A DNA stretch of 64,000 nt from Picocystis sp. L7 (Eukaryota; Chlorophyta; Picocystophyceae; Picocystales; Picocystaceae), in NCBI GenBank assembly GCA_020975725.1, contig QXJR01000009.1, forward strand, positions 833,643 to 897,642. The letters run 5' to 3'. Shown in pieces: positions 1,263-49,600 of this stretch. Made by a program: the position numbers and the translations under genes. Numbering within the stretch: position 1 is the first letter of the stretch; the number at the start of each line of letters is the position of its first letter. The notes below the pieces were generated by a model. That model was not told the origin of the DNA. It saw only the letters and a list, made by a program, of their open reading frames with translations, and searched no databases.

Positions 1263-1845
1263 CTTCGCCACCGCGGACCTAAGAAGGACCCCGGCGGTCC
1301 TCGGATCTCCCAAGCAATCTCGCACTCAAAACGATGGCGATCGATGGGAAGGACGAACGATGCAAGGAGGAGCTGGCAAGTTTCCTCAGTCCATCCGCCT
1401 ACTCTCGATCCTTGTCGCTACGGCGGGTTGGACAGGTCAGAATCAGAAACCACCCGCGGGAGTTTCTTCTCAAACCGGCGAGGAGTGGTGCGTGTGCAAC
1501 ATACGAGAAGATGTCACACCCACCAGAAAATACTTTCTTTCGGCATGAATCGTCCCAAGGGAACTAGCCGGATCGTTTAAAAATAGGGCTTCGTTGGCCA
1601 TCCATTTAGTAGATTGTTGGTATGAGCACGAAAAACATCTCACGTACTGGAGCGGATTGAAGACGCTTTCAAAGATAGAAACCTCATCTTCAAGGATGGA
1701 CCTTACTATTGCTCCAAATCGTCGTCCCAAGCGTAAGGGCAAAGCATTCGTAGCACGAATCAAAAAAACCCTTCATAAAGCCATGAGGTGTAGTTATTAT
1801 TCTAGTACGCGCATGTATAAAGAGAATGGACATTCTTTCGAGTGA
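1263..1845. other. Gene-free stretch upstream of the ATP-grasp gene
   Basis: No convincing protein is seen on either strand; open frames here are short and overlap each other. It must contain the promoter of the minus-strand ATP-grasp gene, but I recognise no specific element. Confidence 0.5.
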
Positions 1846-12053: not shown

Positions 12054-12839
12054 ATGATGTTCCCCTTCTTTCCGAGGGCCCGTGGGCTTCCGATCCCGGA
12101 CCAACTGGAATGGAGCAACAGGGACGTCCTCTGTGGCACTTGTCGAAATATCGATTGTTCGGGGACTGGCGGGAAGGTCGGGTGGGCAGGGACGACCGTC
12201 GGCCAATGCGCCGATGGCGATGATGCATGTTCCAATGCCGGGGATCCAGAGAGGAATGCGCACAAAATTGGTGCGAACACGTCCACGCAAAACCGGGGTC
12301 GGACGTGGACGCTAGCGCACCAGAAGGCGCTCCTCCGTACCGTCCTGGACGAGGAATGCTGCTTCTTCGAGAAGGTCTCGAATGTGGAGAAGAATAGCGC
12401 GTGGAAGTTGCTGTTGGAACGGATGCGAGGATCCTACCCGGACCTCTTCGGCGGTTGGATATTGCATCGAAATGTGGTGCAGAGGAGATTGATGGATATT
12501 ATCCGCCTACACCGCGAGAACGAGCAGGAAGCGTTGCGAGCGACTAGTCGCGGAGGAGGGAGAGCGGACGAGGAATTCGCCCAACTGTATGAGGTTAGCG
12601 AAAAGATGGAGGAGGCGAAGGCGAGGATAGGAGCGGAGGCCAGCCAGAAAAATCTGGCTCGCGAGGAGAAGGAGCGACTTGGCGAACTCCTGCGGGAGCA
12701 CAAGTTGCAACGCGCCGGGAAGCGAAAGCGATGAACGTCGCCTACCAGCAAGTCACCGGACGAGGCTGATGGACGTGGGGGTGGGCGACGTCGTCGCTCT
12801 TCCGCGACGAGAGAACGAGAAACACGGGTTACTTGCTTC

Positions 12840-13565
12840 TGTTACGCAAGGTCACCCTACCCCCATCGAGGGTAGCTCCAATTCAAAGGATAGACAGTAA
12901 CAATTGCAGTGAAAAGTGGGGAGAGGCCTTCCCTTAGTGAGGACTGACCCGGCTCTGAGCCCAATACTCTCGACGGGACGGGAAGTCCCCCCAATCAAGA
13001 CTGGGACTGAATGGACCAGCTTCAGGAACCCGGGTTCACCCCCCTTACTAATTGGGAAACAGACCCGGGCTCAGTCGGGGCGAATCCCCCCCAAGTGGAT
13101 CGAACGGTGGAATACCCTGGTGACCGGATAGGGTCGGCAACTACACAGCCCGAGGACCGTCCGATGGGGACGCGGGGGCCCACGTGGGCCCCCAACTACC
13201 TGTTGAGCGGATAAGGAGGGCAGTTTCCACCACTCGTTCTCCACGAGAGATCGAAAGAAGAAGGGGAGCAACCCACTTGCTAGAAGAGAACTTTGCTTGA
13301 GCCAGCAACCGGCTGTCCCCTTTCCCTCGTGAGCTTGGTGCGCCATTCTCTTCGGTCGCCAACTGCTCCGGACGACCAGCAAGAAGCTCTCCTACGACCC
13401 CAACCGAGAGGAACTCCTCACTTGAAAAGGAAAGCGAGAGAAGACCGGGAACTAGGGACCTCCCAAGGCGCTCTACGACCCTTTTTCCTCCAACAACCGG
13501 ACAAGGACAAGGTGCACAGGGAGAAAACGTGTGTGAAAAGTGTCCCTCACGGACGCTTGGTAACA
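12840..13565 (+). repeat. 5' LTR of DNMT-Gypsy-1
   Basis: 726 bp, TGTTACGCAAGG...GGTAACA, with a 6-bp inverted terminus. Matches 19875-20600 with no difference noticed. It must drive transcription of the element, but I could not identify a TATA box with confidence. Confidence 0.95.
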
Positions 13566-13611
13566 CTGTCGAAGCCTAAGCTCCAGGTGTACTCTTTGAA
13601 CGACCCGTAAC

Positions 13612-14868
13612 ATGGAGGAAGGTGACCCTGCCACCCGTATGGGTACACTTCGGAGGGAGCTTGAACAAGAAAAAGACCGAAGAAACGCTCTTGAAGTCCA
13701 GGTGGCTGAGCTCCAGCAACTCCTTGAAGAACTTCAAGCAACGAAGGCGAATGAAGCTGAGGATGGTGACGAAGAACCTCTTGGCGAGGAGGTACCCCAA
13801 GAAGACACGAGCATGGAAGAAGAGGGTGTTGTCATCCCATCAGAGAGAGAGGGCTTGCCACACCTCATTAGTGTATATGGCACAGCCTTACAAGACTCAA
13901 AAAATATATCCAAGGTGTCGTTGGAGAAGCCCGACAAGTTTACGGGCCTAGAGCTAGAGGACAGCCCCTACGCCCTCATGTATTGGTACCGAGACGTTCT
14001 TTGCTGGTGCCAAGCCTACGCCTTTAATAGGCCAATGGAACAACTGGTTCTTGCTATTAATCAAGCCTTGGCAGGTACCGCAAAGGCAATGGTGCAGAAT
14101 CTGATAATGCGAGACCCAAGCGCGCTCTCGTCAGTGGAAGACCTGTATCGGTACTTGCGTCGAACCTTTCAAAACCAAGACCCCGGGCCGGAAGCGTGGC
14201 GGGAATTCCATACCACCCGAATGAAGCGAACAGAAAATGTCTTGCAATTTCTCAACAGATTGGTGCAGTTGAGCTTTGTCGTTAACGCGAGCAGCTCACC
14301 TGTGTGTCGAACGCTTACAGAAAATGACATATCCGCTCGTCTTCAGCATGGTCTTCCAGGACATTTGCAAAGCGCTCTGTACAAACACCTGGACCATCTG
14401 ATTGAAGTGGACAAAGCTCCTGACATGGAGCCTGGAAGTCTCGCCGCAATCATTTTCAAACTGGAGCGTGAGATAAACGAGCATGCGAAGAAGGACACTC
14501 GGCAACCAGTGAACAATTGGAAACCGCGTTCTACAGGTGGGCCCTTCAACCGAACATCGCGCTACCCAGCCTCGCAGTCACCAGCAGCAATGGCAGCTGC
14601 TCTACCTACAGCAAGGCCCAGCAATAGTGCTAAGGAGAGCTCTCCAGCAACACGGCAACGCAAACGATTTGATGACCTGGATGAAAACCAGAAGACTTCC
14701 ATCATCAGAGTGCAAACTCAGTTAGCGAACAAGCCCTTGGGTGCGAAGTTGACACAGGAAGAGCGAGACCTCTGCCTGTCACATGCCTTATGCTTGCGCT
14801 GCCGCCGATATGGTCACGACCAGGCGGCCTGCAAGATGGCATCTGTGATGGGTGCCCCAAAAAACTAG
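13612..14868 (+). CDS. gag: Gag of DNMT-Gypsy-1
   Basis: A 418-residue capsid/nucleocapsid protein from a good ATG 46 bp after the LTR. Residues 8-60 form a charged coiled coil. The middle (about 120-275) is a Ty3/gypsy retrotransposon gag capsid domain ([15 protein letters not shown], then [17 protein letters not shown]). The C-terminus has a CCHC zinc knuckle, C394-x2-C397-x4-H402-x4-C407, for RNA binding. The gene ends in ...CCA AAA AAC TAG, where the last sense codons form a -1 slippery heptamer. It is closely related to the gag at 39319. Confidence 0.93.
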
Positions 14869-14906
14869 TGGCGCTCCGTCCGGTAACTATAGTTACCGAG
14901 ACGGAG
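14859..14906 (+). promoter_or_regulatory. Programmed -1 ribosomal frameshift signal, gag to pol
   Basis: The heptamer A AAA AAC (14859-14865) is in the gag frame immediately before the TAG stop. After an 8-base spacer a strong hairpin follows at 14874-14906: CTCCGTC pairs with GACGGAG (one unpaired A) and CGGTAAC pairs with GTTACCG around a small loop. Slipping back one base enters the pol frame at CTA 14865. The same heptamer, spacer and stem occur at 40572-40619 with stem-preserving changes. A AAA AAC is a classical retroviral slippery sequence. Confidence 0.85.
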
Positions 14907-17900
14907 CCGGGAGCGAAATCTGCAGCCGCCCCGGTTACCAAGAAAAGGGATCCCGTCTGCCTCCATTCACTCACTAACAACAGGCCTAGACATGAGTTCC
15001 TTGCTGCTGAGACTTATTTTGGGAAGAAGCCCAACAAAATCAGAACCCAAGCATACCTGGACACCCTAGCGAGTTATTGTTTCATCAGTGAACGACTCTT
15101 CGATACACTGCGGCAATCTGACCCACAGGGTCTGTCCTGGGGATACACTACACAGACTTACGAATACAGTGTGGCTGTGGGCGAGCAAGTCCACACTGCC
15201 CCAGTAATTCAGGCTTCATTTTCGATCGATGGGTTCCGAGCCCGCATCGAGTTTGGAGTGGCACCTCTGGAAACATTCGATTGTATTCTGGGTGCGACCT
15301 TCTGTCACAAGCATTTGAAAGCACTTGATTGGCAGAATCATCGAATGATTCTCTGCAACAAAAATGGGACCAGTTTCTCAGTATATGGAGACCATCAGTT
15401 CCTCGCATCAAGGAAGCTGGACCTGATCGTTCCACGCAGTGAGGCTCGGAAAGCGGTGAAGCACCCTGGCTGTCTACTCTTAATGATACAGCCAATGGAC
15501 ACGACCCCTGAACTGGTCAGTGAAGAATCAGATTTTAGCGCTATGCGCAGCACAGTCAGCGACGAATGGCCACTAAGCGATAGCGATAAGGAAAGGCTGG
15601 ATACTTTAGTGAACAAGCGATACAAGCATTTATTTGAACCTCGCACAGAGCTACCGCCTGAACGGGCACCGGGCGAGCTATTCAAAATCCAGTTGGTCGA
15701 TGGCGCTACGCCACAGTACAGAAATTACTATCGCCTCTCCCCGCAACAACAGGCTGCCCTGAAAGAGCTAGTGGCTGAATATGTTGACGCTGGGAAGATG
15801 GACCTCTGTGCTGGGTCAAGCTGGGGAGCCCCAGTCATCCTGGTTCCTAAGAAGGACGGTGGCTGGCGTGTCGTGTTCGACTATCGTTTATTGAACAGTG
15901 TCACCGTCAAGGACAGGTACCCCCTCCCCAGAATTGATGACTATTTACAGAATCTCCGGGGTGCAAAATTCTTCTCCTCCCTGGATGCGCTGGACGGTTT
16001 CCATCAGGTGCGAATGGATCCTGCAGATATTGACAAAACAGCAGTTGTTACCCCGTTCGGGTCTTATGTATGGAAGGTTATGCCCATGGGGGCAGCCAAC
16101 GCCCCAGCCATGTTTCAACGCATGATGAATAGGGTATTTGGGCATTTACTTTATCTGAAAGTATATATGGACGATATCTTGATACACTCCGAAACAGCAG
16201 AGCAGCACTTCAGCCACCTCGAGGAGTTCTTGGCCACCTGTGAGCACGCTGATATTCGGTTAAAAAGGTCAAAGTGCCACTTCTTTATGAGAAAACTGGA
16301 GTGGGTAGGATTCAGTATTAGGGACGGTCAGCTTGCTTGCACTGATCACTTACTGTCCAAGATACAGCAATTCCCCCGCCCCCGAACACAGCGCGAGAAT
16401 ATGGCCTTCCTTGGACTCTGCCAGTTTTACATGAGGTTCGTGCCTCACTATGCGGAGCTAGCGGCACCCCTCACTGAATTAAACCAGATTGCATTGAAGC
16501 ATAATTTCGACGCTTACTGGAAGGCGCCGCAGGAACAATCCTATAAGGACCTGGTAAAAGCTTTAACCTCAGCGCCAGTACTTACGCTGTTTGATGAAGA
16601 TCGGCCAATTAGGATCGAAACGGATGCATCTGATATTGGAATGGGTGCAGCCTTTATGCAGCAAGACAAGCAGGGCATGTGGCAACCGGTAGAATACTGG
16701 TCCAAGAAGTTCAACACGGCACAGCAGAACTACCATCCTGCTGAGAAAGAGACGTGTGCGATACTTTATGCACTGCAACATTGGAGGCACCTAGTATTTG
16801 GGCAGCAGTTTACTGTCGTCACCGACAATAAAGCTAGCCAGTTCATTGGGACAAAAGCGACCGAACAGCTCTCACCTCGCGAGATGCGATGGGTCGAAAA
16901 GCTGGCCTATTTCGCACCGTTTACGATCGAGTACAGGCCAGGCAAGGAGAATGTAGGCCCAGATTACCTTTCTCGACATTCAGCGAAAGTCAGCGGTGGC
17001 GAGACATACTGCATCTTAGACCTTTGCGCTGGCATGGGCACAACCTTGCGGGCGCTGGAGCTGGTGATACCGGAAGCTGCCCACATCACGATAGATTACA
17101 TAGCAGTGGAGAAAGATAAGGACTGCCGTAGCGTAATTTCACGTGTGTTCCACCAAGTCCGCCTAGCCCGTCCTGGATTGTTCACACGTAAGGACATCTT
17201 CCGTTACGGCAACGATGTTACCACTCTAGTACATCGACGGAAACTCCCCCACGCGCATCTGATTATTGCTGGGGTGCCCTGCCAACCATTTTCGAAGGCA
17301 AACACGGATTTTACCAGGCCCCCGTTAGGCCTGTATGATACCCGAGAGCTCTTTACAGCAGTGGCTAAGCTTCGCGAGCGTTTACGGTCACCTGATTTTA
17401 TACTGGAATGCACTCCGTTTGCCCCTCATCTGGCGTCCCACTTGGAGACAGTTGCAGAATGGTTTGGGGAGCCCCAACGCGAGGACCTGTCAGCGTATTG
17501 TGCACAGTCTCGACTACGACTGTGTTGGACATCATTACCAGCTTCTACACCGCAGATCAGCCTACTCGAACGACTTTCGATGACCTGGCAAGACTGCCTG
17601 GATGCTGGCTCACGAGTGCCGCTGGACGCATTCGATCAACCCCGCCTGAAATGCCCCACCTTGATGGCTAGCGCACGATCCCACAGTGATCGCTCGCGTT
17701 CCACATGGGTGCATGATCTGGAGGGAGCATTGCGCCCGCTTACGATAACTGAGCGGGAGCGACTCGTCGGTATGCAAGCTGGGGACACTGCTGCACTTCA
17801 CGTCAGCGAACCCAGTCGGCAGCGCATGTGTGGCAATGCATTCCCAGTGGGATGGATTGCGCACATGCTACACCGATGGATGAACCACACACGGACGCTT

Positions 17901-19847
17901 CGACCGCTAGCTAGCCGCAGTCCTGCGGGGACTGTGTGTGGATCAATCGCGTCTTTAACAGATCAACATCCCGATCGAACATCCTTGACAGGACAGACCA
18001 ATGAGCCGCCGCCTATACTCGACCGTATACGAGTTGCCGCTGAAGCTGATCCACAGTACCAGAGGCTGTTGAGGTCACCCCCAGAGAAATCAACAGTACG
18101 CGATGGCCTCCTTTTTGAGGTCTCGACTAATGCTCAACCAGTCCTGGTCGTTCCATCGGACAATTCCTTGAGACAGGAGTTGTTGCATATGATACACGAC
18201 CAGCGACACTTTGGATCTGCGCGAACGTTCGCAGATGCCAAGCGTCACTTCACATGGACAGGCATCCGATCGCACATCGATCACTTTGTTTCACGTTGTC
18301 CTGTGTGTCAGCTTCAGAAACCTGGGAACCGGTCACGACTTGTGCCGTTATGTCCAGAATTCAGATTCTACCCTTATCCATTCCACACGGTGGTGCTGGA
18401 CGTGGTAGAAAACTTGCCCCTCACATCGCTAGGGCATAATGCAGTGCTAACTATTGTGGACAAATTTACGAAGTTCGCAATCTATATACCAATTCATTCA
18501 ACTTGGAGTGCTCATCGACAAGCACAATGCATAATGGATGGCCTGGTGTACAAATACCATACACCTGTGCATATACATACTGACAATGGCCCAGCTTATC
18601 GGGCCCTCTTCCAAGCTTTCTGCAGAGCCTTAGGAGTCAGGCATGTCACAGGGACACCATACCACTCTCAGTCACAGGGTGGGGCAGAAAGGCAGCATCG
18701 CACACTTCTGCAGACGCTGCGTACAACGTGCGCTGAAAAACATCAGTGGGACCAGTACTTGCAAGCTGCTGCGCATGCGTATAACGATACGGTGCACACT
18801 GTCACTCAGCACTCTCCTTTCGAGTTACTTTTTGGCTGCCCAGCCAGACTACCATGGCATCTGCAACTGCCCACATGTGAAGGACTGGAGCAGAATCAAA
18901 CCATTACCACCTTCGATAAGCGGGTCACAGCCTTGTTAGCCAAGCACCGTACGGTGTATCAGGCCGTGCAGGACAATCTGGTCACGGCCGCCGACCAGAT
19001 CGCTAAAGCTACAGCACATCGACCCAAGAAAGCCTTCGCTGTCGGAGACAAAGTAAAGGTCCAGTACGGCCTCAAAGGACCCACAGACAAACATAAATTG
19101 GATCCATATTTTGTGGGGCCCTACATAATCAAACAGGTGCTGAAAAACGGATCATACCAACTGGACTTACCACCGGGCTCTGCCTTTTCAGATCGCATAC
19201 ATGGCAACAGATTGGAACCTTGGGTGGACTCAGACTTGACACTATTCCCAATGGATGAACACAGGCAGCCCGCTATAACACCCTTGCAAGATACAGCAGC
19301 CATGCAGCTTGAAGCTGCATCATACCGCATCAGAAGATACTTGCTCCGCGATTACTCCGCATTCCCTACATTGCCTGTTAAGTACTGGATTGAGAGCAAT
19401 TTGACTGACGCTTCGCAACGATACTTCTGGGTGGATGAGTCCTCTCCCCTACTTGAGGAATTCTTACCGCTGGAAGAAAACAACGGGTGTATCCCTGAGA
19501 AGGGCATCACACCAGCAAACTATGAAGCCGTCAGGACACACAAAAAGACAACCTATCTGCAGTCGCCAGCTCCCATCATGATCAACACCTGGCCCTTCAA
19601 CAAGTTACCATACGAGACAAGACGACGACCCCAACTGCCAGCGCCCTCAGACCTAGTAGGCTGCGTGATACAAGAATTGTTCCACTTGGAGGACAGGCCA
19701 GTGTACTATCAGGGCCTCGTCCAGGAAAAGGAAGGGGACCTTTTTGAAGTCTTATGGACAGATGGAAAGACCGATTACTACCTCGAACATCAGGTTCGAT
19801 CAATGATTTATGACCCAGTAGCCTACATATACGACTTCCAGGCATAG
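14865..19847 (+). CDS. pol: Pol polyprotein with embedded cytosine-C5 DNA methyltransferase (DNMT-Gypsy-1)
   Basis: Read by -1 frameshift from gag; intact over ~1660 codons. In order: aspartic protease (active-site-like DTLAS at 15060 instead of DTGA/DSGA); reverse transcriptase with YMDD at 16164-16175; RNase H (catalytic D at 16623); then an inserted DNA methyltransferase, about 17008-17880. The latter has motif I DLCAGMG, motif [10 protein letters not shown] with catalytic Cys at 17280-17282, motif VI ECTP (usually ENV; Glu at 17406), motif VIII QSRLR, motif IX-like [12 protein letters not shown] and motif [10 protein letters not shown]. Integrase follows: HHCC finger 18183-18320, acidic residues D18399, D18582, E18687. 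A GPY/F module lies at ~19060-19215 and a C-terminal segment at ~19650-19815 looks Tudor-like (VGCVIQ...YYQGLV...VLWTDGK). The methyltransferase probably modifies cytosine in the element's own cDNA or near integration sites (inference). Confidence 0.93.
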
Positions 19848-19874
19848 AGCCCTCGAAGTCTGAAGCCGGGAGAG

Positions 19875-20600
19875 TGTTACGCAAGGTCACCCTACCCCCA
19901 TCGAGGGTAGCTCCAATTCAAAGGATAGACAGTAACAATTGCAGTGAAAAGTGGGGAGAGGCCTTCCCTTAGTGAGGACTGACCCGGCTCTGAGCCCAAT
20001 ACTCTCGACGGGACGGGAAGTCCCCCCAATCAAGACTGGGACTGAATGGACCAGCTTCAGGAACCCGGGTTCACCCCCCTTACTAATTGGGAAACAGACC
20101 CGGGCTCAGTCGGGGCGAATCCCCCCCAAGTGGATCGAACGGTGGAATACCCTGGTGACCGGATAGGGTCGGCAACTACACAGCCCGAGGACCGTCCGAT
20201 GGGGACGCGGGGGCCCACGTGGGCCCCCAACTACCTGTTGAGCGGATAAGGAGGGCAGTTTCCACCACTCGTTCTCCACGAGAGATCGAAAGAAGAAGGG
20301 GAGCAACCCACTTGCTAGAAGAGAACTTTGCTTGAGCCAGCAACCGGCTGTCCCCTTTCCCTCGTGAGCTTGGTGCGCCATTCTCTTCGGTCGCCAACTG
20401 CTCCGGACGACCAGCAAGAAGCTCTCCTACGACCCCAACCGAGAGGAACTCCTCACTTGAAAAGGAAAGCGAGAGAAGACCGGGAACTAGGGACCTCCCA
20501 AGGCGCTCTACGACCCTTTTTCCTCCAACAACCGGACAAGGACAAGGTGCACAGGGAGAAAACGTGTGTGAAAAGTGTCCCTCACGGACGCTTGGTAACA
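19875..20600 (+). repeat. 3' LTR of DNMT-Gypsy-1
   Basis: 726 bp, apparently identical to 12840-13565. It is followed by CTTC (20601-20604), the second copy of the target duplication. Confidence 0.95.
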
Positions 20601-20865
20601 CTTCCGTGAGGAGCTGAAGGTCATGCGCCGAGAAAGAGTGTACGACCGCGCAATGAGGGAGTACGAGGTGCAATCGAGATTGTTCCGCAAGAATCCGGTT
20701 CGCTTCCCGGAGCCACTGCCACTGGAAGAATACGTTGGGTGGCACTTGAAAGGACATTCCACCATCACGACTTCTTTGACGTACGAGTGTTCGACGCACA
20801 TCGATGAAGTCGAAGTTGAAGTCGAGTCTCCAAACAAGGAGCGAAGTGGAAAAGACCAGTAGTAG

Positions 20866-38619: not shown

Positions 38620-39275
38620 TGTTACGCCGGGTAGGCCTGGCTCTCCTATGAAGCCATGCCCTTAGAGTTCCAGGAGCAGTGGGGGGCAGGACCCCGACAA
38701 TCGGCCGGTCAATCGAGTGAGCCCCGGACTAATCCCCGGGTTAGTCGGACGGAATAGTCCGGGCGAACCGGACCCAGACCGATCGACCCCCGGGCCGAAT
38801 CCCCTCGAAGATTCGAGAAGGGGGCACGAAGGGTGGAGATGTTGTGTGGAAGATTCGGTCGGCTTAGGAACTGAATCTTGGCCGTCCGATGGATGACGTA
38901 AGCAACACGTGACCATCAGCCGCCGCAATTCAGTTGAGGGGGCTACGTACGAACCCCTCAACCTTCAAGGGGAGGCTCTTAAGGGAACCTCCCTAGCATG
39001 TAGTAGATGAGAACTTGCTTGACCCCACGACGTCCACGGCGCCTCTCCCACGGATTTTCGCGAGCCATCAGCACTTTCCGCGCCTGAGAAGCAGCGCTCC
39101 AAGTCTCTCCAAGTGCCGAAGGAAACACCACCGAGCCAAGAAGGGGACGGACGCCGCTCTCGCCAACGAGAAGTGCGCCACCCCAAAGAAGAAGAAACCG
39201 CCTCCATTTCGTGAGAGGTCGAAGTTTCCAGGAGCAAACCGTGTGTCCAACGTCCTTCACGGACGCTTTGTAACA
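38620..39275 (+). repeat. 5' LTR of DNMT-Gypsy-2
   Basis: 656 bp, TGTTACGCCGGGTAGGCC...CTTTGTAACA; the partner is at 45591-46246. Confidence 0.95.
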
Positions 39276-39318: not shown

Positions 39319-40581
39319 ATGGAGGAGAGCGACCATGCAACCCGCATGAGCACGCTTCGTAGGGAACTCGAACAAGAACGGGAGGAGAGGTCCTCCCTTG
39401 AGACGAAGATTGCTGAGCTCCAGCAACTCATTGAGAAGCTCCAAGCTCACAAAGTTGAAGAAAGTGAGGAAGAAGAAGAGATGGTGGTTGAAGACGGCCC
39501 CGAGGGTGTACACCTCGCGGAGCCAAAGGAGCCGAGCCTACAAGAAGTCACACCATCAGAGCAAGAAGGTTTACCTCATCTCATCAGCCTCTATGGCATG
39601 GCTTTACAAGATTCCAAGAATATCTCAAAGGTGTCCCTGGAGAAACCGGACAAGTTTACCGGTACGGAACTTGAGGACAACCCCTATGCCCTTACATATT
39701 GGTATAGGGATGTCCTTTGTTGGTGCCAAGCATATGCCTTTAACCGCCCGATGGAACAACTTGTGTTAGCCATTAATCAAGCACTCGGCGGTACGGCAAA
39801 ATCCATGGTTCAAAACCTCATTATGAGAGACCCGGCAGCCCTTAACTCCGTCGAAGACTTGTATGGTTACCTCCGTAAAACCTTCCAAAATCAAGACCCA
39901 GGACCGGAGGCTTGGCGGGAGTTCCACACCGCCCGTATGAAGCGGACAGAAAATGTGCTGCAGTTCCTCAACAGGTTGGTGCAACTGAGCTTTGTAGTTA
40001 ATGCAAGCTCCTCACCTGTGTGCCGGACTCTCACGGAACATGACATCTCGGCCCGTTTGCAACATGGCCTCCCAGGCTACTTGCAAAGAGCTTTATACAA
40101 GCACCTGGATCATCTAATTGATGTGGACAAAGCTCCTGACATGGAGCCTGGAAACCTTGCTGCCATTATCTTTAAACTGGAACGGGAAGTACATGAATCA
40201 GCAAGGAAAGACTCAAGACAACCAGCGGACAACTGGAAATTGCAGAGCAAAGGAGTCCGTAACACCGGTACCATGCATGGCTTTCCAAATCGATCCAGCA
40301 TAGCCACAGCGGCAGCGTTACCGTCATCGCATCCAGGTAACTCAAGGGTGAATGGGCCAGCCAAGCGACAGCGAAAGCGCTTCGATGAATTGGATGAAGA
40401 ACAGCAGAGTTCGATCGTGAAGGTGCAGACTAGGCTGGCCAACAAGCCCCTAGGTGCAAAACTTACTCAAGAAGAAAAGGATCTCTGCCTAGCGAACGCG
40501 CTGTGCCTACGCTGTCGCCGTTACGGACATGATCAGGCAGCCTGCAAAATGGCATCCGTAATGGGTGCCCCAAAAAACTGA
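39319..40581 (+). CDS. gag: Gag of DNMT-Gypsy-2
   Basis: 420 residues from a clear ATG, colinear with the gag at 13612: N-terminal coiled coil with an acidic run (ESEEEEEMVVED), a gypsy capsid domain ([32 protein letters not shown]) and a C-terminal CCHC zinc knuckle ([14 protein letters not shown]). Amino-acid identity with the DNMT-Gypsy-1 gag is high in the capsid domain, while the linker before the knuckle is variable. It ends AAA AAC TGA at the frameshift site. Confidence 0.93.
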   Translation: MEESDHATRMSTLRRELEQEREERSSLETKIAELQQLIEKLQAHKVEESEEEEEMVVEDGPEGVHLAEPKEPSLQEVTPSEQEGLPHLISLYGMALQDSKNISKVSLEKPDKFTGTELEDNPYALTYWYRDVLCWCQAYAFNRPMEQLVLAINQALGGTAKSMVQNLIMRDPAALNSVEDLYGYLRKTFQNQDPGPEAWREFHTARMKRTENVLQFLNRLVQLSFVVNASSSPVCRTLTEHDISARLQHGLPGYLQRALYKHLDHLIDVDKAPDMEPGNLAAIIFKLEREVHESARKDSRQPADNWKLQSKGVRNTGTMHGFPNRSSIATAAALPSSHPGNSRVNGPAKRQRKRFDELDEEQQSSIVKVQTRLANKPLGAKLTQEEKDLCLANALCLRCRRYGHDQAACKMASVMGAPKN

Positions 40582-40619
40582 AGACCCTCCGTCCGGTAAC
40601 TACGGTTACCGGGACGGAG
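40572..40619 (+). promoter_or_regulatory. Programmed -1 ribosomal frameshift signal, gag to pol
   Basis: Heptamer A AAA AAC at 40572-40578, directly followed by the gag stop TGA. An 8-base spacer leads to a hairpin at 40587-40619: CTCCGTC with GACGGAG and CGGTAAC with GTTACCG, loop TACG, one unpaired G. Layout and spacer length are identical to 14859-14906, although the stop codon, loop and bulge differ. Confidence 0.85.
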
Positions 40620-43600
40620 CCGGGAGCGAAACCTGCAGCCACCCCGGTTACCAAAGATGGGAATGTAGTCTGCCTGCACTCACTTACCAATGACAGGCCT
40701 AGACATGAATTCCTGGCTGCCGAGACTTACTTTGGAAAGAAGCCACATAAAATCAGAACACAAGCTTACCTGGACACCTTAGCAAGTTACTGCTTCATGA
40801 GCGAACGCCTCTTCAAAGAGCTGCAGCAAGCTGACCCTAAGGGACTGTCCTGGCAGTATACATCAGCGGCCTTTAATTATAGCGTGGCTGTGGGCCAACA
40901 GGTCCACACTGCCCCAGTAATTAAAGCGCAATTCTCGATCGATGGGTTCCAGGCCTGCATCGACTTCGGAGTTGCTCCTCTGGAGACCTTTGACTGCATT
41001 CTGGGAGCAACCTTCTGCCACAAGCACTTGACAGCACTGGACTGGCAGAATCATCGCATGGTACTACGAAGTAGCAATGGTACAAAGTTTACTGTCTATG
41101 GAGACCACCAGTTTATATCTTCAAGAAAACTGGACCTGATTGTGCCCCGTAGTGAGGCACGTAAAGCGGTAAAGGATCCAGGCTGCCTGCTTCTAATGAT
41201 TCAGCCGGTAGATACAACGCCCGAACTACTCAGTGAAGATTCAGACTTCAGCAGCATGCATAGTCAGGTCAGCGATGAATGGCCTCTTGATGACGCTCAC
41301 CGACAGCGGCTGGACGACCTCGTGAACAAACGGTACAAGCATTTGTTCGAGCCTCGCACAGAACTACCACCAGAACGGGTACCGGGCGAAACATTCAAGA
41401 TCCAGGTGGAAGAAGGAGCCACTCCACAGTACAGAAACTATTACAGGCTTTCCCCTCAGCAGCAAACTGCCCTCAAGGAGCTGGTGACTGAGTATGTTGA
41501 AGCTGGAAAGATGGACCTATGCGCAGGATCTAGCTGGGGTGCCCCAGTGATCCTGGTCCCCAAAAAAGACGGGGGATGGCGGGTCGTTTTCGATTATCGC
41601 CTACTGAACAATGTGACTATTAAAGACAGATATCCGCTTCCACGGATCGACGATTACTTACAGAATCTCAGAGGAGCCAAGTACTTCTCATCGCTCGATG
41701 CGCTGGATGGGTTTCATCAGATACGCATGCATCCGGATGACATCGACAAGACAGCGGTGGTCACCCCGTTTGGCTCTTACGTCTGGAAAGTAATGCCCAT
41801 GGGGGCAGCAAACGCACCCGCGATGTTCCAGCGTATGATGAACAGGGTGTTTGGTCATTTATTGTACCTGAAAGTGTACATGGATGACATTCTTGTTCAC
41901 TCTGAAACAGTTGAGGAACACTTCAAACATTTGGAAGAATTCTTCGCCACCTGCGAACGTGCCGACATTAGGCTGAAGAGGTCTAAATGCCACTTTTTCA
42001 TGAGTACACTGGAATGGATTGGTTTCCGCATCCGCGATGGTCAGCTCGCCTGCACTGATCATTTGCTGTCCAAGATCAAACAGTTTCCGCGTCCCCGAAC
42101 GCAGCGAGAAAACATGGCATTCCTTGGTCTCTGCCAGTTTTATATGAGGTTCGTCCCTCGCTATGCGGAACGGGCAGCTCCCTTGACAGAATTGAATCAA
42201 GCTGCTCTGAAGCACGGCTTCGCTTCATATTGGAAAGAGCCACAGGAGAAGGCATACCAGGAGCTCATCAAAGCCTTGACCACAGCCCCGGTATTGGCTC
42301 TATTTGATGAAGACAGGCCCATACGGGTCGAGACCGACGCTTCCGATGTGGGGATGGGAGCAGCTTTGATGCAGCAGGATCAACAGGGAGGTTGGCATCC
42401 GGTTGAGTTCTGGTCAAAGAAATTCAATGCTGCCCAACAGAATTACCATCCTGCTGAGAAGGAGACATGTGCAATATTATATTCACTGCAGCATTGGAGG
42501 CACCTCCTGTTTGGCCAGCAGTTCACGGTCATCACTGACAACAAGGCCAGTCAGTTTATTGGAACAAAAGCTACTGAACAGCTATCTCCGCGCGAAATGC
42601 GATGGATCGAAAAGTTGGCGTACTTCGCCCCGTTCAAGGTGGAGTACAGGCCAGGCACAGAGAACGTTGGACCCGATTACCTTTCCAGGCACTCAGCTAA
42701 GGTGAACGATACGGACACATATTGCATCTTGGACTTATGTGCAGGTATGGGAACAACGCTGCGTGCGCTTGAATGCGTAATACCAGAATCGACCAATATT
42801 ACCTTGGATTACATAGCAGTGGAACAAAATGAAGACTGCCGCAGCGTAATTGCACGCGTGTTCCACCAGGTTCGCTTAGCACGCCCTGGGCTCTTTATGC
42901 GCAAGGACATCTTTCGGTATGGAAACGATGTGACTGAATTGGCGCATCGACGAAAGCTCCCCCAAGTCCACCTGCTGATTGCTGGGGTGCCCTGCCAACC
43001 ATTTTCGCGGGCGAACACCGACCCGTCAAAGCCACCGCTGGGCCTTTACGACGAACGTGAACTGTTCACAGCAGTGTCAAAGATACACAAGCGGTTGCGG
43101 TCGCCAGACTACATATTGGAATGTACGCCGTTCGCCCCGCACTTGAAAACCCACCTGGACAAGATTGCACACTGGTTTGGAGAACCCACCTGCGAAGATC
43201 TCTCAAAGTACTGTGCGCAAGCTCGAGTCCGGCTGTGCTGGACATCATTACCTCCGCTTAAACAGGATCCTGGAGAAATGGGGACAATACCTATGACCTG
43301 GCAGGATTGCCTAGATGAAGGATCGAAGGTACCTACGGACGCATTGAACCGACCCCGCTTGAAGTGCCCCACTCTGATGGCCAGTGAACGATCGCACAGT
43401 GACCGTTCGCGTTCCACCTGGGTGCACAGTCAAGATGGGACCCTACGCCCGTTGACCATCAGCGAGCGGGAAAGACTCGTCGGTATGCAGGTTGGTGACA
43501 CTGCAGCGCTCAATGTCAGCGAAACCAGCCGGCAACGCATGTGCGGCAACGCCTTCCCCATGGGTTGGATTGCACACATGTTACACCGATGGCTAAACAA

Positions 43601-45563
43601 CACACGGACGCTTCGACTGCTAGCCGGCCGCGGTCCTGCTGGGACTGTGTGCGGGTCAATCGCGTCTATTACAAGTCAGCAATCTACGCAATCATTGCGC
43701 ACAGGTCTTACAGGTCAGTTGCCTCCCATACTGGACAGGATTCGCGTCGCCGCTGAAACAGATCCAGAGTACAAGAAATTACTGCGCGCACCGCCGGAAG
43801 GCACGACAGTGCGCGATGGTTTGCTGTTCGAGCAATCGGCCAATGCTCAACCAGCACTGGTGGTACCAGCAGATAATGCTCTACGACAGGAACTGCTACA
43901 CATGGTGCACGATCATCGACACTTTGGGTCAGCCCGTACACTCGCTGACGCCAAGCGACATTTCACCTGGACTGGTATTCGATCGCACATCGAGCACTTT
44001 GTCGCTCGCTGTCCTGCCTGTCAGCTTCAGAAACCAGGTAACCGGTTACGACACACACCGCTCTGTCCAGAAATGAAGTTCCACCCTTACCCTTTTCACA
44101 CGGTGGTACTAGATATGGTGGAGAACTTACCCCTTACTGCCCTGGGTCATAATGCAGTATTGACAGTGGTGGACAGGTTTACTAAATACGCCATCTATAT
44201 ACCTATCCACTCTACCTGGAGTGCTCATAGACAAGCTCAGTGTCTTATGGACAGCCTCGTCTACCGGTTCCATACACCTGTACATATTCACACAGATAAC
44301 GGACCGGCTTATCGAGCATTATTCCGAGCATTCTGTGCCGCGCTGGGTGTCCGCCACGTAACCGGAACGCCGTACCATTCACAGTCTCAGGGTGGCGCAG
44401 AACGGCAACATCGCACCCTGCTGCAGACGTTACGGACGACGTGCGAGAACAAACATCAATGGGATCAGTATTTACAGGCAGCAGCACATGCTTACAATGA
44501 TTCTGTGCATGATGCAACCAAACATTCCCCTTTTGAATTGCTCTTTGGCTGTCAATCAAGGCTACCGTGGCACCTCCAGTTGCCCACAAAGGATGGACCA
44601 GCTGATCACCTGACAGTAACAACCTTCGACAAAAGAGTAACAGACCTGCTGGAGCAACATCGCGCAGTCTATCGGGTTGTACAGGAAAACTTGGTGAAGG
44701 CTTCGCAGCATGTTGCGGCAGCAACAGCGCACAGACCTAAGAAGGTGTTTGCTGTTGGAGACAAGGTGAAGGTGCAGTATGGGCTCAAGGGGCCCACCGA
44801 TAAGCACAAATTGGACCCTTACTTTGTAGGTCCTTATCTCATCAAGAAGGTGCTGAAGAATGGTGCATATCAACTGGAACTACCACCGGGCTCCGCCTTT
44901 TCAGATCGTATCCACGCCAACAGGTTGGAACATTGGGTGGATTCAGATCTCACTCTTTTCCCAATGGATGAACATCGGCAGCCCGCAACGGCACCCTTGC
45001 CTGATACTGCAGCCATGCAAAGTGAATCAACTACCTATCGTATTCGACGATACTTGTTACGGGATTACTCAGTGTTTCCTGCACGCCCCGTACGTTACTG
45101 GATTGAAAGCAACCTGGCTGACGCGTCGCAACGCTATTTCTGGGTGGATGAGTCCTCTACCCTGCTGGAAGAATTCCTACCTCTCGAGGAGAACAATGGC
45201 TGTATCCCTGAAAAGGGCATCAGCCCCTCGAATTATGACGCAGTCAAGACACACAAGAGGACAGTTTACCTACAGTCACCTGACCCAATCATGATCAATA
45301 CTTGGACGCAAGCAAAGCTACCGTACCAGACTAGACGACGACCTGTTGTTGCTGTGCCCACCAACCTCATTGGCTGCGTGGTACAAGAACTTTTCCATTT
45401 GGGCAACCACAAAGCTGCATACTACCAAGGATTGGTGACCAACGTCGTTAATGGGTTGTTTGAAGTGTTATGGACAGATGGAAAGGTAGAGCATTACACA
45501 GAGCAGAAAGTAAGGAGCATGGTGTATGATCCAGTGGCAGCCATCTACGACTTTCAGCTTTGA
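40578..45563 (+). CDS. pol: Pol polyprotein with embedded cytosine-C5 DNA methyltransferase (DNMT-Gypsy-2)
   Basis: Entered by -1 slip at CTG 40578 and open throughout; the first ATG inside is only at 40797, after the protease motif, which supports frameshift expression. Protease again has DTLAS in place of DTGA. RT has YMDD at 41877-41888; RNase H follows (VETDASDVGMG). The methyltransferase spans about 42716-43600: [15 protein letters not shown] with catalytic Cys at 42993-42995, [31 protein letters not shown]. Integrase has the HHCC finger (CPACQLQK) and core acids in [17 protein letters not shown] and GGAERQ. GPY/F ([17 protein letters not shown]) and a Tudor-like end (IGCVVQELF...YYQGLV...VLWTDGKVEHY, about 45361-45530) close the protein. 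Every catalytic motif I can judge is intact. Confidence 0.93.
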   Translation: MKTLRPVTTVTGTEPGAKPAATPVTKDGNVVCLHSLTNDRPRHEFLAAETYFGKKPHKIRTQAYLDTLASYCFMSERLFKELQQADPKGLSWQYTSAAFNYSVAVGQQVHTAPVIKAQFSIDGFQACIDFGVAPLETFDCILGATFCHKHLTALDWQNHRMVLRSSNGTKFTVYGDHQFISSRKLDLIVPRSEARKAVKDPGCLLLMIQPVDTTPELLSEDSDFSSMHSQVSDEWPLDDAHRQRLDDLVNKRYKHLFEPRTELPPERVPGETFKIQVEEGATPQYRNYYRLSPQQQTALKELVTEYVEAGKMDLCAGSSWGAPVILVPKKDGGWRVVFDYRLLNNVTIKDRYPLPRIDDYLQNLRGAKYFSSLDALDGFHQIRMHPDDIDKTAVVTPFGSYVWKVMPMGAANAPAMFQRMMNRVFGHLLYLKVYMDDILVHSETVEEHFKHLEEFFATCERADIRLKRSKCHFFMSTLEWIGFRIRDGQLACTDHLLSKIKQFPRPRTQRENMAFLGLCQFYMRFVPRYAERAAPLTELNQAALKHGFASYWKEPQEKAYQELIKALTTAPVLALFDEDRPIRVETDASDVGMGAALMQQDQQGGWHPVEFWSKKFNAAQQNYHPAEKETCAILYSLQHWRHLLFGQQFTVITDNKASQFIGTKATEQLSPREMRWIEKLAYFAPFKVEYRPGTENVGPDYLSRHSAKVNDTDTYCILDLCAGMGTTLRALECVIPESTNITLDYIAVEQNEDCRSVIARVFHQVRLARPGLFMRKDIFRYGNDVTELAHRRKLPQVHLLIAGVPCQPFSRANTDPSKPPLGLYDERELFTAVSKIHKRLRSPDYILECTPFAPHLKTHLDKIAHWFGEPTCEDLSKYCAQARVRLCWTSLPPLKQDPGEMGTIPMTWQDCLDEGSKVPTDALNRPRLKCPTLMASERSHSDRSRSTWVHSQDGTLRPLTISERERLVGMQVGDTAALNVSETSRQRMCGNAFPMGWIAHMLHRWLNNTRTLRLLAGRGPAGTVCGSIASITSQQSTQSLRTGLTGQLPPILDRIRVAAETDPEYKKLLRAPPEGTTVRDGLLFEQSANAQPALVVPADNALRQELLHMVHDHRHFGSARTLADAKRHFTWTGIRSHIEHFVARCPACQLQKPGNRLRHTPLCPEMKFHPYPFHTVVLDMVENLPLTALGHNAVLTVVDRFTKYAIYIPIHSTWSAHRQAQCLMDSLVYRFHTPVHIHTDNGPAYRALFRAFCAALGVRHVTGTPYHSQSQGGAERQHRTLLQTLRTTCENKHQWDQYLQAAAHAYNDSVHDATKHSPFELLFGCQSRLPWHLQLPTKDGPADHLTVTTFDKRVTDLLEQHRAVYRVVQENLVKASQHVAAATAHRPKKVFAVGDKVKVQYGLKGPTDKHKLDPYFVGPYLIKKVLKNGAYQLELPPGSAFSDRIHANRLEHWVDSDLTLFPMDEHRQPATAPLPDTAAMQSESTTYRIRRYLLRDYSVFPARPVRYWIESNLADASQRYFWVDESSTLLEEFLPLEENNGCIPEKGISPSNYDAVKTHKRTVYLQSPDPIMINTWTQAKLPYQTRRRPVVAVPTNLIGCVVQELFHLGNHKAAYYQGLVTNVVNGLFEVLWTDGKVEHYTEQKVRSMVYDPVAAIYDFQL

Positions 45564-45590: not shown

Positions 45591-46246
45591 TGTTACGCCG
45601 GGTAGGCCTGGCTCTCCTATGAAGCCATGCCCTTAGAGTTCCAGGAGCAGTGGGGGGCAGGACCCCGACAATCGGCCGGTCAATCGAGTGAGCCCCGGAC
45701 TAATCCCCGGGTTAGTCGGACGGAATAGTCCGGGCGAACCGGACTCAGACCGATCGACCCCCGGGCCGAATCCCCTCGAAGATTCGAGAAGGGGGCACGA
45801 AGGGTGGAGATGTTGTGTGGAAGATTCGGTCGGCTTAGGAACTGAATCTTGGCCGTCCGATGGATGACGTAAGCAACACGTGACCATCAGCCGCCGCAAT
45901 TCAGTTGAGGGGGCTACGTACGAACCCCTCAACCTTCAAGGGGAGGCTCTTAAGGGAACCTCCCTAGCATGTAGTAGATGAGAACTTGCTTGACCCCACG
46001 ACGTCCACGGCGCCTCTCCCACGGATTTTCGCGAGCCATCAGCACTTTCCGCGCCTGAGAAGCAGCGCTCCAAGTCTCTCCAAGTGCCGAAGGAAACACC
46101 ACCGAGCCAAGAAGGGGACGGACGCCGCTCTCGCCAACGAGAAGTGCGCCACCCCAAAGAAGAAGAAACCGCCTCCATTTCGTGAGAGGTCGAAGTTTCC
46201 AGGAGCAAACCGTGTGTCCAACGTCCTTCACGGACGCTTTGTAACA
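45591..46246 (+). repeat. 3' LTR of DNMT-Gypsy-2
   Basis: 656 bp with one visible difference from the 5' LTR, followed by the target duplication GATT. A purine-rich AGGAGAG lies just before it. Confidence 0.95.
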
Positions 46247-46668: not shown

Positions 46669-49600
46669 GATTCGCAAGTCTTTCTCAGACCTGCGTACGT
46701 CCAAGGAAAAGAATTGAGGACACTGTGGGACACCGGCGCAGGCCGTTCCTATGTGCACAAAAAATTCAGAAATTTTGGCAAAGTTATCAACAGGTCCCAC
46801 TATGTTCGAAGCGTATTTGCCAATGGGCAAGCGCATACGACCAATGAACTATTGCAACTTTTAGTCTTACCGGGTCCAGGCGATCCGCCAACTAAGAAAA
46901 CAATTGAGGTAAAGGCAAAGGTCATCCCCATGGACCTACCTGCGAGTTACGATCTGATATTTGGTTTCGATGTTATGAGCCAACTACAAGCTTCGTTGAA
47001 TTTGGATCGTAATACGATCCAGTTGACACACCGCAATCAGACGGTAACTTTGGTTCAGGCCAAGTTCAAGACAGGAGAGACGTCCCCTGTCAATGGCCTG
47101 GCTTCCGCAAGCGTAAGTTTTGCGGAGCAACACGCTCACCACCCTGTATCTTTTAGCACTATGGAAGAAGAGTTCGGGCCATTTAAGACGGCGCTGTTCT
47201 TAGCAACAACAACTGGCCTGGCGACGCTCAACTATGCTGAGCCAGAAGAAGCAATGCGCCAAGACTGGGGAATATTACCTGGACCCATTATATGTGTCCC
47301 ACCTTTGAGATTGTTACCCCAGGTCACACAAAAGCTGCAAAGTACAGCACCCTTAAGTTTGGTGCTGTTGGCCCCTTTCATGCCTACCAGTCCATGGTTT
47401 CGGGAACTAAGACCCTTCATACAAAAGGGTAGGGTAATACCGTCAGCGGACACAAGTTATGGATATGAAGCGGCAACACAGGCAAGCAGCGCCACCACCT
47501 GCCCAATGGTAGCCCTGCAGATCAACCGCCATGCTTCAGCAGAACCGACAACCTTGAGTGCAATACAGGAAAGTCGCCCTACAATCACTAGGACAACCAT
47601 CGAGAGTTTAGAGTTGCCTGAAACCCTTGATCCTGCACAGCAAAAACAATTGAAAGACTTGCTGGGAAGATATATGCATCTAATGCAACCTCCTGGGGAC
47701 AATGAACCACCGCCTGCCCCTTCAGAATTCGATCATCGCATCGTCTTAACTGAGGGAGGAACACAACGAGTACAGACTCGCCCAATACGTTTAGCGGCAG
47801 ATCAGACAATTGAATTGCAGAAACGGTTCGAACACCGTTGCAACCGTGGTATCATGCGGAAGGCTGCCAGTGATAGCCGAACTTGCAGATCTGCAGTTTT
47901 TATGGTAAAGCGTAAGGACGGCCCCGATCGCGATGTCGTTGACTTCAAAGCCTTGAATGAAGTGACTGTGAAGGATCATTTTCCCTTACCTCTCATTGAT
48001 GAGCTCTTGGATGGGTTAAGTAAGGCCCGCTACTTCATAAGCGTTGATCTTAAGGAAGCATACTACAACATCCGTATGCACCCTGACAGTATAAGAAACC
48101 CCGGTACAATCACCCACTTTGGGTTGTTTGAATGGCTGATACTGGTTATGGGCATGTGCAATGCAGTCGCAACCTTTCAGCGCATGATGGACGCAAGGTT
48201 CCATCATCTGATATATGACAAGCGAACAGTTGCTTGTTATCTGGATGACCTATTGATCTACGCAAACAGCTTCCAGGTCATGATAGATACCCTCTCACAG
48301 GTACTGCAAATCTGCGATCGATATCGCTTCAAACTAAACATGCACAAAAGTACCTGGTTTCAGACACACCTGACCTACTTAGGACATATTATAGGGGAGG
48401 GACAGTTGCGGCCGGACCCCCGACTAATCAGTGCAGTAAGGGATTTCCCCCAACCTAGGACTCCCACGCAGTTGCGTTCATTTTTGGGGTTGGCAGGATA
48501 CTACAGAAAGTTTGTTTCGGGATTTCAAACCAAAGCATCACCGCTTTACGAATTGACCAAGACAGCAGAGCCGTTGGTCGCCCGATGGACCGACCAGGCC
48601 GAATCGGCCTTCCTGGCTCTTAAGCTTGCCTTGACTTCAGAACCTGTATTGAAGCTTTGGACGACTGGATGCGCAACGGAGATTCATACCGATGCATCTA
48701 ATATTGGTCTTGGAGTTGTATTGCTTCAACAACACCACGGCCGTTGGCACCCTGCCGCCTATTGGAGCAAAGCTCTACAAGGCGCACAGAAGAACTATAC
48801 CACCAGTGAACTGGAGATGCTTGCCATCGTGCTCGCACTGGAAACGTGGCGCCATTATTTGTTTGGTGTCCCCGTTGTTGTGCGCACTGACCATCAAGCG
48901 TTGGTTCACTACCTGCACAAGCGACCTACAAAACTACAACAACGCGAGTTGTCGTGGCTTCCCCGTCTTGCCAACTTTCAGATTTCTATTGAGTACAAAC
49001 CAAGCAAGAGCAATTTATCGCCGGACGCTCTCAGTCGTAGACGCCCAGAGCTGAAGCTCACTATACTGGATTTGTGCGCAGGCACTGGCACCGTCATTCG
49101 TAGTCTCGCGCACACAGTACCAAAACACATCCGCATTGATTACCTCGCAGTGGAAAACAACGCAGATTGCCGATTGGTGATTCAAAGGGTGTTTAACTTG
49201 GTTCAACGAGACCGCCCAAACATGTTCCTACGCAAAGACATCTTTCGGTTGGGCCATGATGTCAAAGACCTGTGCAACAGGAGAGTTCCTAAGGTGGACT
49301 TTCTCATTGCAGGTGTGCCATGTCAGCCTTTCAGCACCGCCAACCCAAATAACAAGGGATTACAGGATGAGCGTTCGCTTTTCCAAACGGCGCACCAGCT
49401 CATACTCCGAACGCAGGCTACCTTCTATGCCATTGAATGTACGCCGTTCGCTGCCCACCTGCAAGGGGATCTCACACAAATTCAGCATTGGTTGGGACAA
49501 CCAACTGTCCATGACTTGAGCCAATGGTCAGCGCAGCAACGCACTAGGCTGCTTTGGAGTAATTTGGATACAGATAATCTAGTTCCGCAACCAACGGAAC

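What the first reader, a model, noticed from the sequence alone, without database searches (positions are those of the whole stretch)
14865..19847. DNA methyltransferase built into gypsy pol between RNase H and integrase, in three elements
DNMT-Gypsy-1, -2 and -3 all have a full-length C5-methyltransferase at the same place in pol (catalytic Cys codons at 17280, 42993 and 49321), with motifs I, IV, VI, VIII and X recognisable. Two copies are intact in elements with (near-)identical LTRs, so the domain is under selection and the elements are recently active. A retroelement that can methylate DNA could pre-methylate its own cDNA, mark its insertion site or interfere with host silencing. Methyltransferase-bearing retrotransposons are known from dinoflagellates and charophytes; these may be a further lineage.
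Basis: partly seen in the sequence, partly recalled or inferred. Interest (0 to 1): 0.92.

Follow-up and report, generated by a model that had tools for sequence, protein, structure and literature searches.

The report
Methyltransferase-carrying retrotransposons in green alga
A small green-lineage alga carries many young retrotransposons whose polyprotein includes a DNA-methylating enzyme resembling the animal DNMT3 type, and the enzyme seems to have passed as a module between distant retrotransposon lineages, extending a phenomenon known from a few other organisms.

Summary
Elements 1 and 2 are Ty3/gypsy-type LTR retrotransposons with LTRs identical or one base apart, 4-bp target duplications, gag, an A_AAA_AAC frameshift site and one pol frame with a C5-methyltransferase between RNase H and integrase. 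Element 3 is a broken copy of another pol lineage with a related domain in the same slot. The domain is DNMT3-like: DNMT3A is the best solved structure by sequence profile (E 1.4e-10), and DNMT3A/B/C fill the top 39 fold rows. The catalytic Cys is in 49 of 49 domains; dN/dS between elements 1 and 2 is 0.08. The genome holds about 160 such domains. Lineages of elements 1/2 and 3 are 37% identical in RT/RNase H but 47-49% in the faster-evolving DNMT, with boundaries near the domain edges, so the DNMT probably moved between lineages or was captured twice from one source. And the position of DNMT3A's R836 (recalled as the CpG reader) is Ser in 48 of 49, with no CpG decay seen. DNMT-bearing retrotransposons, one gypsy-type included, were published in 2018: a new variant of a known kind. 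Methylation of its own cDNA is plausible but untested.

The parts
12840..13565 (+). Element 1 5' LTR (TGTTAC...GTAACA)
   Evidence: 728-base 100% match to 19875-20602; the last two bases, beyond CA, are taken as chance
19875..20600 (+). Element 1 3' LTR; 4-bp target duplication CTTC at 12836-12839 and 20601-20604
13612..14868 (+). Element 1 gag ORF (418 aa)
   Evidence: weak gag matches PF14893 E 0.021 and PF03732 E 0.041, below cut-off
14859..14865 (+). A_AAA_AAC slippery heptamer directly before the gag stop: predicted -1 frameshift into pol
   Evidence: same site at the gag end in element 2 and in 14 of 18 further loci examined
14865..19847 (+). Element 1 pol: protease (weak), RT, RNase H, DNMT, integrase, SH3-like C-terminus (below cut-off)
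   Evidence: open frame 14685-19847; Pfam
15843..16319 (+). Element 1 reverse transcriptase (RVT_1, E 8.1e-36)
16518..16913 (+). Element 1 RNase H (E 5.4e-33 and 1.6e-32)
17010..17891 (+). Element 1 DNMT3-like C5-methyltransferase; catalytic Cys codon 17280
18159..18668 (+). Element 1 integrase: H2C2 zinc finger (E 8.5e-15) and rve core (E 7.6e-11)
38620..39275 (+). Element 2 5' LTR
   Evidence: 655 of 656 identical to 45591-46246; C/T at 38774
45591..46246 (+). Element 2 3' LTR; target duplication GATT at 38616-38619 and 46247-46250
39319..40581 (+). Element 2 gag ORF (420 aa), ending in A_AAA_AAC + TGA at 40572-40581
40578..45563 (+). Element 2 pol, same domain order as element 1
42723..43604 (+). 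Element 2 DNMT3-like domain; catalytic Cys codon 42993
46714..50295 (+). Element 3 pol: RT, RNase H, DNMT; frame ends inside the integrase; lineage B
49060..49908 (+). Element 3 DNMT3-like domain; catalytic Cys codon 49321

Best explanation
These are Ty3/gypsy-type LTR retrotransposons of a small green-lineage alga that carry a DNMT3-like cytosine-5 methyltransferase, with its catalytic residues kept, as a standing domain of pol between RNase H and integrase. Shown by sequence: position, conserved catalytic residues, purifying selection, very recent insertions, and a domain whose divergence pattern differs from the rest of pol. Inferred: the domain is made as part of Gag-Pol through -1 frameshifting, is packaged in the particle with RT and integrase, and methylates the element's own double-stranded cDNA as it is made or integrated. 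The new copy then looks like methylated, already handled host DNA, which would help it escape attack on naked cDNA or tune its expression after insertion. Because the equivalent of R836 of DNMT3A is Ser, the sequence context is predicted not to be the DNMT3A-type CpG.
Against: No enzyme assay, expression or methylation data. Transitions in CpG/TpG/CpA context between related copies are not raised (0.0271 against 0.0292 elsewhere, ratio 0.93), and no trinucleotide context stands far out (highest 1.37-fold). Element CpG observed/expected, 0.75-0.81, overlaps that of the rest of the window, 0.78-0.92. DNMT tolerates more change than RT: element 2 against L024/L030 0.09 for DNMT and 0.016-0.022 for RT. 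Gypsy copies with frames of up to 2672 residues and no recognisable DNMT exist in the same genome, so the domain is not needed by every gypsy here. In the precedent paper the gypsy-type DNMT (KnitGypsy) showed no activity in yeast, which its authors call inconclusive.
Confidence: 0.6

Rival explanations
1. The DNMT acts in trans on host chromatin: it marks target or flanking DNA at integration, or perturbs host silencing, rather than methylating the element's own cDNA.
For: The domain sits directly before integrase in pol. The host has its own methylation machinery to interfere with: DNMT1, CMT, PWWP-DNMT and DRM types. About 160 copies could supply enzyme.
Against: Predicted synthesis as Gag-Pol through a frameshift site points to the particle. 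No chromatin-reading domain such as PWWP or ADD was matched in the three pols; nuclear signals were not tested. No raised CpG decay in element copies.
Confidence: 0.22
2. The domain serves RNA or a non-catalytic role: methylating the genomic RNA or primer tRNA, or working as a DNA-binding or oligomerising part of the RT-integrase complex.
For: DNMT2-type enzymes of the same superfamily act on tRNA (PMC9998398 passage). No DNA-methylation footprint was found. The R836 equivalent is Ser in 48 of 49.
Against: Among solved structures the closest are DNMT3, not DNMT2, in sequence and fold ranking. Catalytic Cys, Glu and Arg residues are kept, which a purely structural role would not demand.
Confidence: 0.12
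3. The domain is a passenger, carried along by young copies without selection on its activity.
For: Young copies give little time for decay; at dS 0.01-0.1 the median dN/dS is 0.386 (23 pairs), at 0.1-0.4 0.367 (8 pairs; 4 of them involve L035, whose DNMT lies in a short frame of 527 residues). Some gypsy copies do without a DNMT.
Against: At dS 0.4-1.5 the ratio is 0.07-0.11 (8 pairs), with elements 1-2 at 0.082; at 1.5-3 the median is 0.103 (30 pairs, up to 0.349). The catalytic Cys is in 49 of 49 domains. The domain is kept in three divergent pol lineages and in 20 database relatives.
Confidence: 0.05
4. The closeness of the DNMT in lineages A and B reflects rate differences, not transfer; all lineages inherited one DNMT vertically.
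For: RT+RNase H data do not reject A+B as one clade (AU p 0.274). DNMT data neither demand nor reject A+B (p 0.329). The DNMT of lineage C has the longest branch, which lowers A-C identity. A-B exceeds A-C in some RNase H windows too.
Against: Integrase data reject A+B (p 0.0029; B is there a single long-branched row, P0021). Within families the DNMT evolves faster than RT (patristic ratio 1.44-1.8), yet A-B has ratio 0.40. The block of excess identity coincides with the DNMT.
Confidence: 0.2

Closest known systems
KnitGypsy-Dnmt3 of Klebsormidium nitens (PMC5890265; abstract, introduction, results and discussion read)
   Same: Gypsy-type pol with a Dnmt3-related C5-methyltransferase inside the Pol frame; catalytic residues conserved; purifying selection on the domain.
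   Different: There the repeats are arranged as in DIRS elements (figure legend); here ordinary LTRs with 4-bp target duplications. Its sequence could not be obtained, so relatedness was not tested.
SymbioDIRS-Dnmt3 of Symbiodinium (PMC5890265)
   Same: Dnmt3-type domain in Pol, many copies, purifying selection; activity on CG shown in yeast.
   Different: DIRS element with tyrosine recombinase and split repeats; different RT class.
SymbioLINE-Dnmt (PMC5890265)
   Same: Retrotransposon-borne C5-methyltransferase in many copies.
   Different: LINE ORF1, orphan DNMT class, CpG-depleted copies.
Animal DNMT3A/3B catalytic domain
   Same: Fold and motif order I-IV-VI-VIII-X, the SA-x(2)-R-x-R-x(2)-W stretch and the R-x(2)-LG stretch near the C-terminus.
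   Different: 21-24% identity in the structural match; no PWWP or ADD matched; R836 equivalent is Ser in 48 of 49; the GR of LGRS becomes GN in 49 of 49.

Membership tests
Ty3/gypsy LTR retrotransposon | Pol order protease-RT-RNase H-integrase with integrase after RNase H | tested here: met
   protease match only E 0.0055 in element 1, below cut-off
Ty3/gypsy LTR retrotransposon | LTR pair with TG...CA ends and short target duplication | tested here: met
   elements 1 and 2; not found for element 3
Ty3/gypsy LTR retrotransposon | RT groups with known Ty3/gypsy RTs in a tree | not tested
   no named reference RTs were put in the trees
DNMT3 family | Best match among solved structures is DNMT3, in one stretch over most of the catalytic domain and in unrearranged motif order | tested here: met
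   DNMT3A E 1.4e-10, positions 72-285 of 291
DNMT3 family | Closer in sequence to DNMT3 than to stand-alone methylases of bacterial type | tested here: inconclusive
   With the 7-row profile the best stand-alone proteins reach 50-51 bits against 44.1 for DNMT3A; with the 52-row profile 32.6-46.7 bits for 16 of them, in one or two pieces, against 47.0 in one piece for a DNMT3A fragment without motif I
DNMT3 family | DNMT3 fold closest among solved structures | tested here: met
   ranks 1-39, of 1000 chains realigned
DNMT3 family | Clusters inside eukaryotic DNMT3 in a tree of all DNMT classes | not tested
DNMT3 family | Arg equivalent to DNMT3A R836 in the target recognition loop | tested here: not met
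   Ser in 48 and Ala in 1 of 49; its CpG-reading role is recalled, and whether all DNMT3s keep it was not tested
DRM (plant rearranged DNMT3) | Motifs IX-X placed before motif I | tested here: not met
   order is I-IV-VI-VIII-X; the host's own DRM-type gene is rearranged
KnitGypsy-Dnmt3 | DIRS-like arrangement of repeats | tested here: not met
   ordinary LTRs
KnitGypsy-Dnmt3 | Sequence relationship to the Klebsormidium elements | not testable with these tools
   no Klebsormidium element sequence was obtained

The most novel reading that the evidence does not exclude
A DNMT3-type methyltransferase of altered, non-CpG specificity is a mobile module of gypsy pol: it was passed between at least two deeply separate pol lineages in green algae, decayed in a third (a long-ORF copy keeps a 208-residue filler in the same slot), and pre-methylates the element's own cDNA in the particle, so that a retroelement uses the host's silencing mark as a passport.
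Probability: 0.2. Interest if true: 0.85.

Novelty: new variant of a known kind. Interest (0 to 1): 0.6.

Why it matters
Why a parasite would carry the host's silencing enzyme was left open by the 2018 paper. This genome is 20.5 Mb and holds some 160 DNMT domains in elements, many in long open frames, beside gypsy copies without DNMT as internal control, so the question becomes testable in one small cell. The evidence that the domain travels between pol lineages independently of RT and integrase suggests that it confers an advantage wherever it lands. The Ser at the DNMT3A R836 position gives a concrete prediction about sequence context.

Tried and rejected
CpG decay: in 26 aligned stretches between related copies, transitions in CpG/TpG/CpA context were not raised; the trinucleotide table from eight chosen pairs showed no strong context.

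DNMT remnant in the long-ORF copy L041: alignment of its 208-residue slot to element DNMTs gave 1 of 300 shuffles at or above the observed score for P0020, 29 of 300 for lineage A, 35 for B, 100 for C and 296 for P0022/23; hhalign probability 6.7%; no Pfam match above cut-off in the slot. Left open, not claimed. That the 19 DNMT-less RT matches form one family was judged by eye from frame length (1438-2672 residues), and only L041 was read.

Source of the DNMT in the host: DNMT1, DNMT2, CMT, PWWP-DNMT and DRM types were found, and I saw no unrearranged DNMT3 outside the elements. The search scores only best candidates (123 of 177) and misses genes split by introns, so absence is not shown. Origin from a stand-alone bacterial-type methylase is not excluded: see the inconclusive row of the membership test; one of those 16 proteins is named from a bacterium, the type of the others is inferred. 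Viral contigs gave 8 loci at 24-35% identity, not followed up.

Topology alone does not settle the transfer: the AU test on RT+RNase H does not reject A+B, the DNMT tree leaves B unplaced, and in the integrase tree B is one long row. The groups were named after the identity table was seen, which the AU test does not allow for. The case rests on distances and on the boundaries.

Host species: not identified. A public set labelled Pavlova lutheri holds 95-100% matches, but a nuclear rbcS, a CMT and a DRM fit a green alga, so I suspect mislabelling or contamination. The 18S search did not complete.

Prior print: five text searches on the subject plus one on DRM, in an open library only; I saw listings and abstract starts of most papers and opened five (PMC5890265; passages of PMC12344493, PMC9998398, PMC6624907, PMC10538959). 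In what I saw, C5-methyltransferases inside retrotransposons are described in PMC5890265 and in PMC12344493, which repeats it (and writes LTR Copia where PMC5890265 says Gypsy). A report in an unopened or unheld paper is not excluded.
Full report
OBSERVATION. The window lies in a 20.5-Mb, 30-contig genome (G000:C7:833643-897642). Element 1 spans 12840-20600: LTRs of 726 bases, identical (728 of 728 aligned), with CTTC on both sides. Element 2 spans 38620-46246: LTRs of 656 bases with one C/T difference at 38774, with GATT on both sides. Both have a gag ORF that ends in A_AAA_AAC followed at once by a stop, and pol in the -1 frame. The same heptamer plus stop lies at the corresponding place in 14 of 18 other loci examined; L027, L033 and L034 have none and L039 only one elsewhere. 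Pol holds RT, RNase H, a C5-methyltransferase and integrase in that order. Element 3 (pol 46714-50295) has the same order but its frame stops in the integrase. Its relative P0021 aligns on to 51843 in other pieces, and element 2 appears to sit inside element 3.

HOW MANY. PF00145 gave 121 matches in the genome, the element 1 domain 133 and a lineage C domain 135; the tool calls such counts lower bounds. Merging 133 rows with 23 and 9 further rows that I picked gave 163 places. One of them proved to be a host DRM-type gene, leaving 162; a few of the rest were not looked at singly. 143 of the 163 had no stop in the matched stretch, and 64 lay in frames of 1650 residues or more. Of 150 scored RT matches (273 candidates), 119 had a DNMT within 2.5 kb downstream and 31 had not; 19 of those 31 have long frames (1438-2672 residues), and the one read, L041, has no recognisable DNMT.

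SELECTION. Elements 1-2: DNMT dN 0.150, dS 1.83, ratio 0.082; dN for RT, RNase H and IN is 0.058, 0.083 and 0.083, with dS saturated. Over all pairs the DNMT median ratio is 0.386 (dS 0.01-0.1, 23 pairs), 0.367 (0.1-0.4, 8), 0.089 (0.4-0.8, 3), 0.075 (0.8-1.5, 5) and 0.103 (1.5-3, 30). RT has 0.376 (8), 0.057 (6), 0.060 (6) and, at 1.5-3, 0.030 (12). RNase H and IN at 0.01-0.1 have 0.371 (18) and 0.246 (10). The 0.1-0.4 bins hold different pairs: four of the eight DNMT pairs involve L035. Where the same pairs can be compared, element 2 against L024 and L030, DNMT has 0.09 and RT 0.016-0.022. So the domain is constrained over long times but less than RT. Pairs are not independent and include decaying copies. 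CpG decay was not seen.

HISTORY. Three pol lineages carry the domain: A (elements 1 and 2), B (element 3, L017-L020, P0021) and C (L005-L012), with P0020 and P0022/23 as further relatives. Within families the DNMT diverges faster than RT: 77 against 90% identity for elements 1-2, 76 against 88% for element 3 and L017. Between A and B the order is reversed: elements 1/2 against element 3 are 37-38% identical in RT/RNase H and 47-49% in DNMT. Median patristic DNMT/RT ratios are 1.44 within A, 1.8 within B, 1.09 A-C, 0.77 B-C, 0.40 A-B and 0.41 B-P0020. Along pol, mean A-B identity is 49 against 36% for A-C in the DNMT, while before it both are 37% and after it 26 against 31%. Smaller excesses of A-B occur in other 60-residue windows, up to 11 points in RNase H and up to 6 after the DNMT. 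Sliding a 294-column segment round the alignment, the best excess of A-B over A-C starts at reference position 440, and 5 of 1164 shifts reach the DNMT segment's value; against within-A identity the best start is 450, and 2 of 1164 do. The DNMT starts at 451. Integrase data reject A+B as one clade (p 0.0029, with B a single row); RT+RNase H (0.274) and DNMT (0.329) do not. I conclude, at about 0.75, that the DNMT moved between A and B or was captured twice from one source. Direction and date are unknown.

HOST. Own DNMTs: two-BAH DNMT1 type (L001), BAH-chromo-DNMT of CMT type (L023), PWWP-DNMT (L022; the type called ChloroDNMT in PMC12344493, passages), DNMT2 (L002; by the CFT motif, recalled as its mark) and a DRM type (L051: 4onq E 7.5e-38, recalled as tobacco DRM, and DRM2 7l4h E 9.1e-29). 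rbcS was found in the held contigs and rbcL was not, which fits the green lineage, where rbcS is nuclear (recalled). PMC9998398 (passages) found no DNMT3 in green algae of the MMETSP transcriptomes. I saw no unrearranged DNMT3 outside the elements, with the limits told under Tried and rejected.

MECHANISM. Shown: architecture, conserved catalytic residues, constraint, recency, and a divergence pattern that points to a modular history. Inferred: synthesis as Gag-Pol, action on cDNA, benefit to the element. The precedent for activity is PMC5890265 (abstract, introduction, results and discussion read): both tested SymbioDIRS-Dnmt3 copies methylated CG in yeast, while KnitGypsy-Dnmt3 and SymbioLINE-Dnmt gave no activity, which the authors call inconclusive.

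NOVELTY. Retrotransposons with C5-methyltransferases are known, including a gypsy-type pol. New here, as far as the searches and the five opened papers show: ordinary LTR elements of this kind in a small green-lineage genome, their number, the evidence for exchange of the domain between pol lineages, and the Ser in place of the R836 equivalent.

CHANGES AFTER CHECKING.

Noticed in passing
L051:1934-3142 (G000:C20:154500-158500): Host gene with a rearranged DRM-type methyltransferase (4onq E 7.5e-38); PMC12344493 (passage) found DRM restricted to streptophytes, so either the host is one or DRM is wider.
   Followed up: partly
L041:1562-2185 (G000:C3:1012000-1015500): Long-ORF gypsy copy with 208 residues of no recognised family in the slot where others carry the DNMT; a decayed DNMT is possible but not shown.
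   Followed up: partly
G000 contigs C3 and C4: 70 of 163 DNMT places lie on two contigs that make up about 12% of the genome (C4 length taken from the last match), like outlier chromosomes.
   Followed up: no
G000:C4:1048329-1063457: Three lineage B copies with identical DNMT domains at 7149-base spacing (L017-L019), as if from LTR recombination or array duplication.
   Followed up: no
window 37214-37399, 38620-46246, 46434-51843, 55213-55398: Element 2 seems nested in element 3, with an 87% repeat of 186 bases on the far sides as a possible LTR remnant.
   Followed up: partly
P0022, P0023: Deep relatives without a source name: gypsy-type pol with a DNMT only 32% identical in the same place, a hint of a wide and old distribution.
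   Followed up: partly
P0004, P0024, P0027, P0028, P0034-P0038, P0041-P0043: A public protein set labelled Pavlova lutheri holds these elements, one stretch at 100%; the label conflicts with the green-type genes of this genome.
   Followed up: partly
window 14790-15305 and 46714 onward: Element 1's protease region reads DTLA where element 3 has DTGA; the protease Pfam match of element 1 is weak.
   Followed up: no
window 56658-59499, 60195-61589: 75-base repeats and ORFs matching DUF285 (PF03382 E 3.7e-133 and 4.4e-25).
   Followed up: no
window 62549-63783: Six tandem copies of a 187-base unit; four are 98% identical to the reference copy, the last 83%.
   Followed up: no
window 53732-54937: DDE_Tnp_4 transposase-like ORF on the minus strand (E 4.4e-16).
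   Followed up: no
window 183-1325: TupA-like ATP-grasp ORF on the minus strand (E 1.3e-13).
   Followed up: no
window 1842-2463, 27038-27802, 30415-31175: Three copies of a repeat of up to 761 bases, 97-99% identical, one inverted.
   Followed up: no
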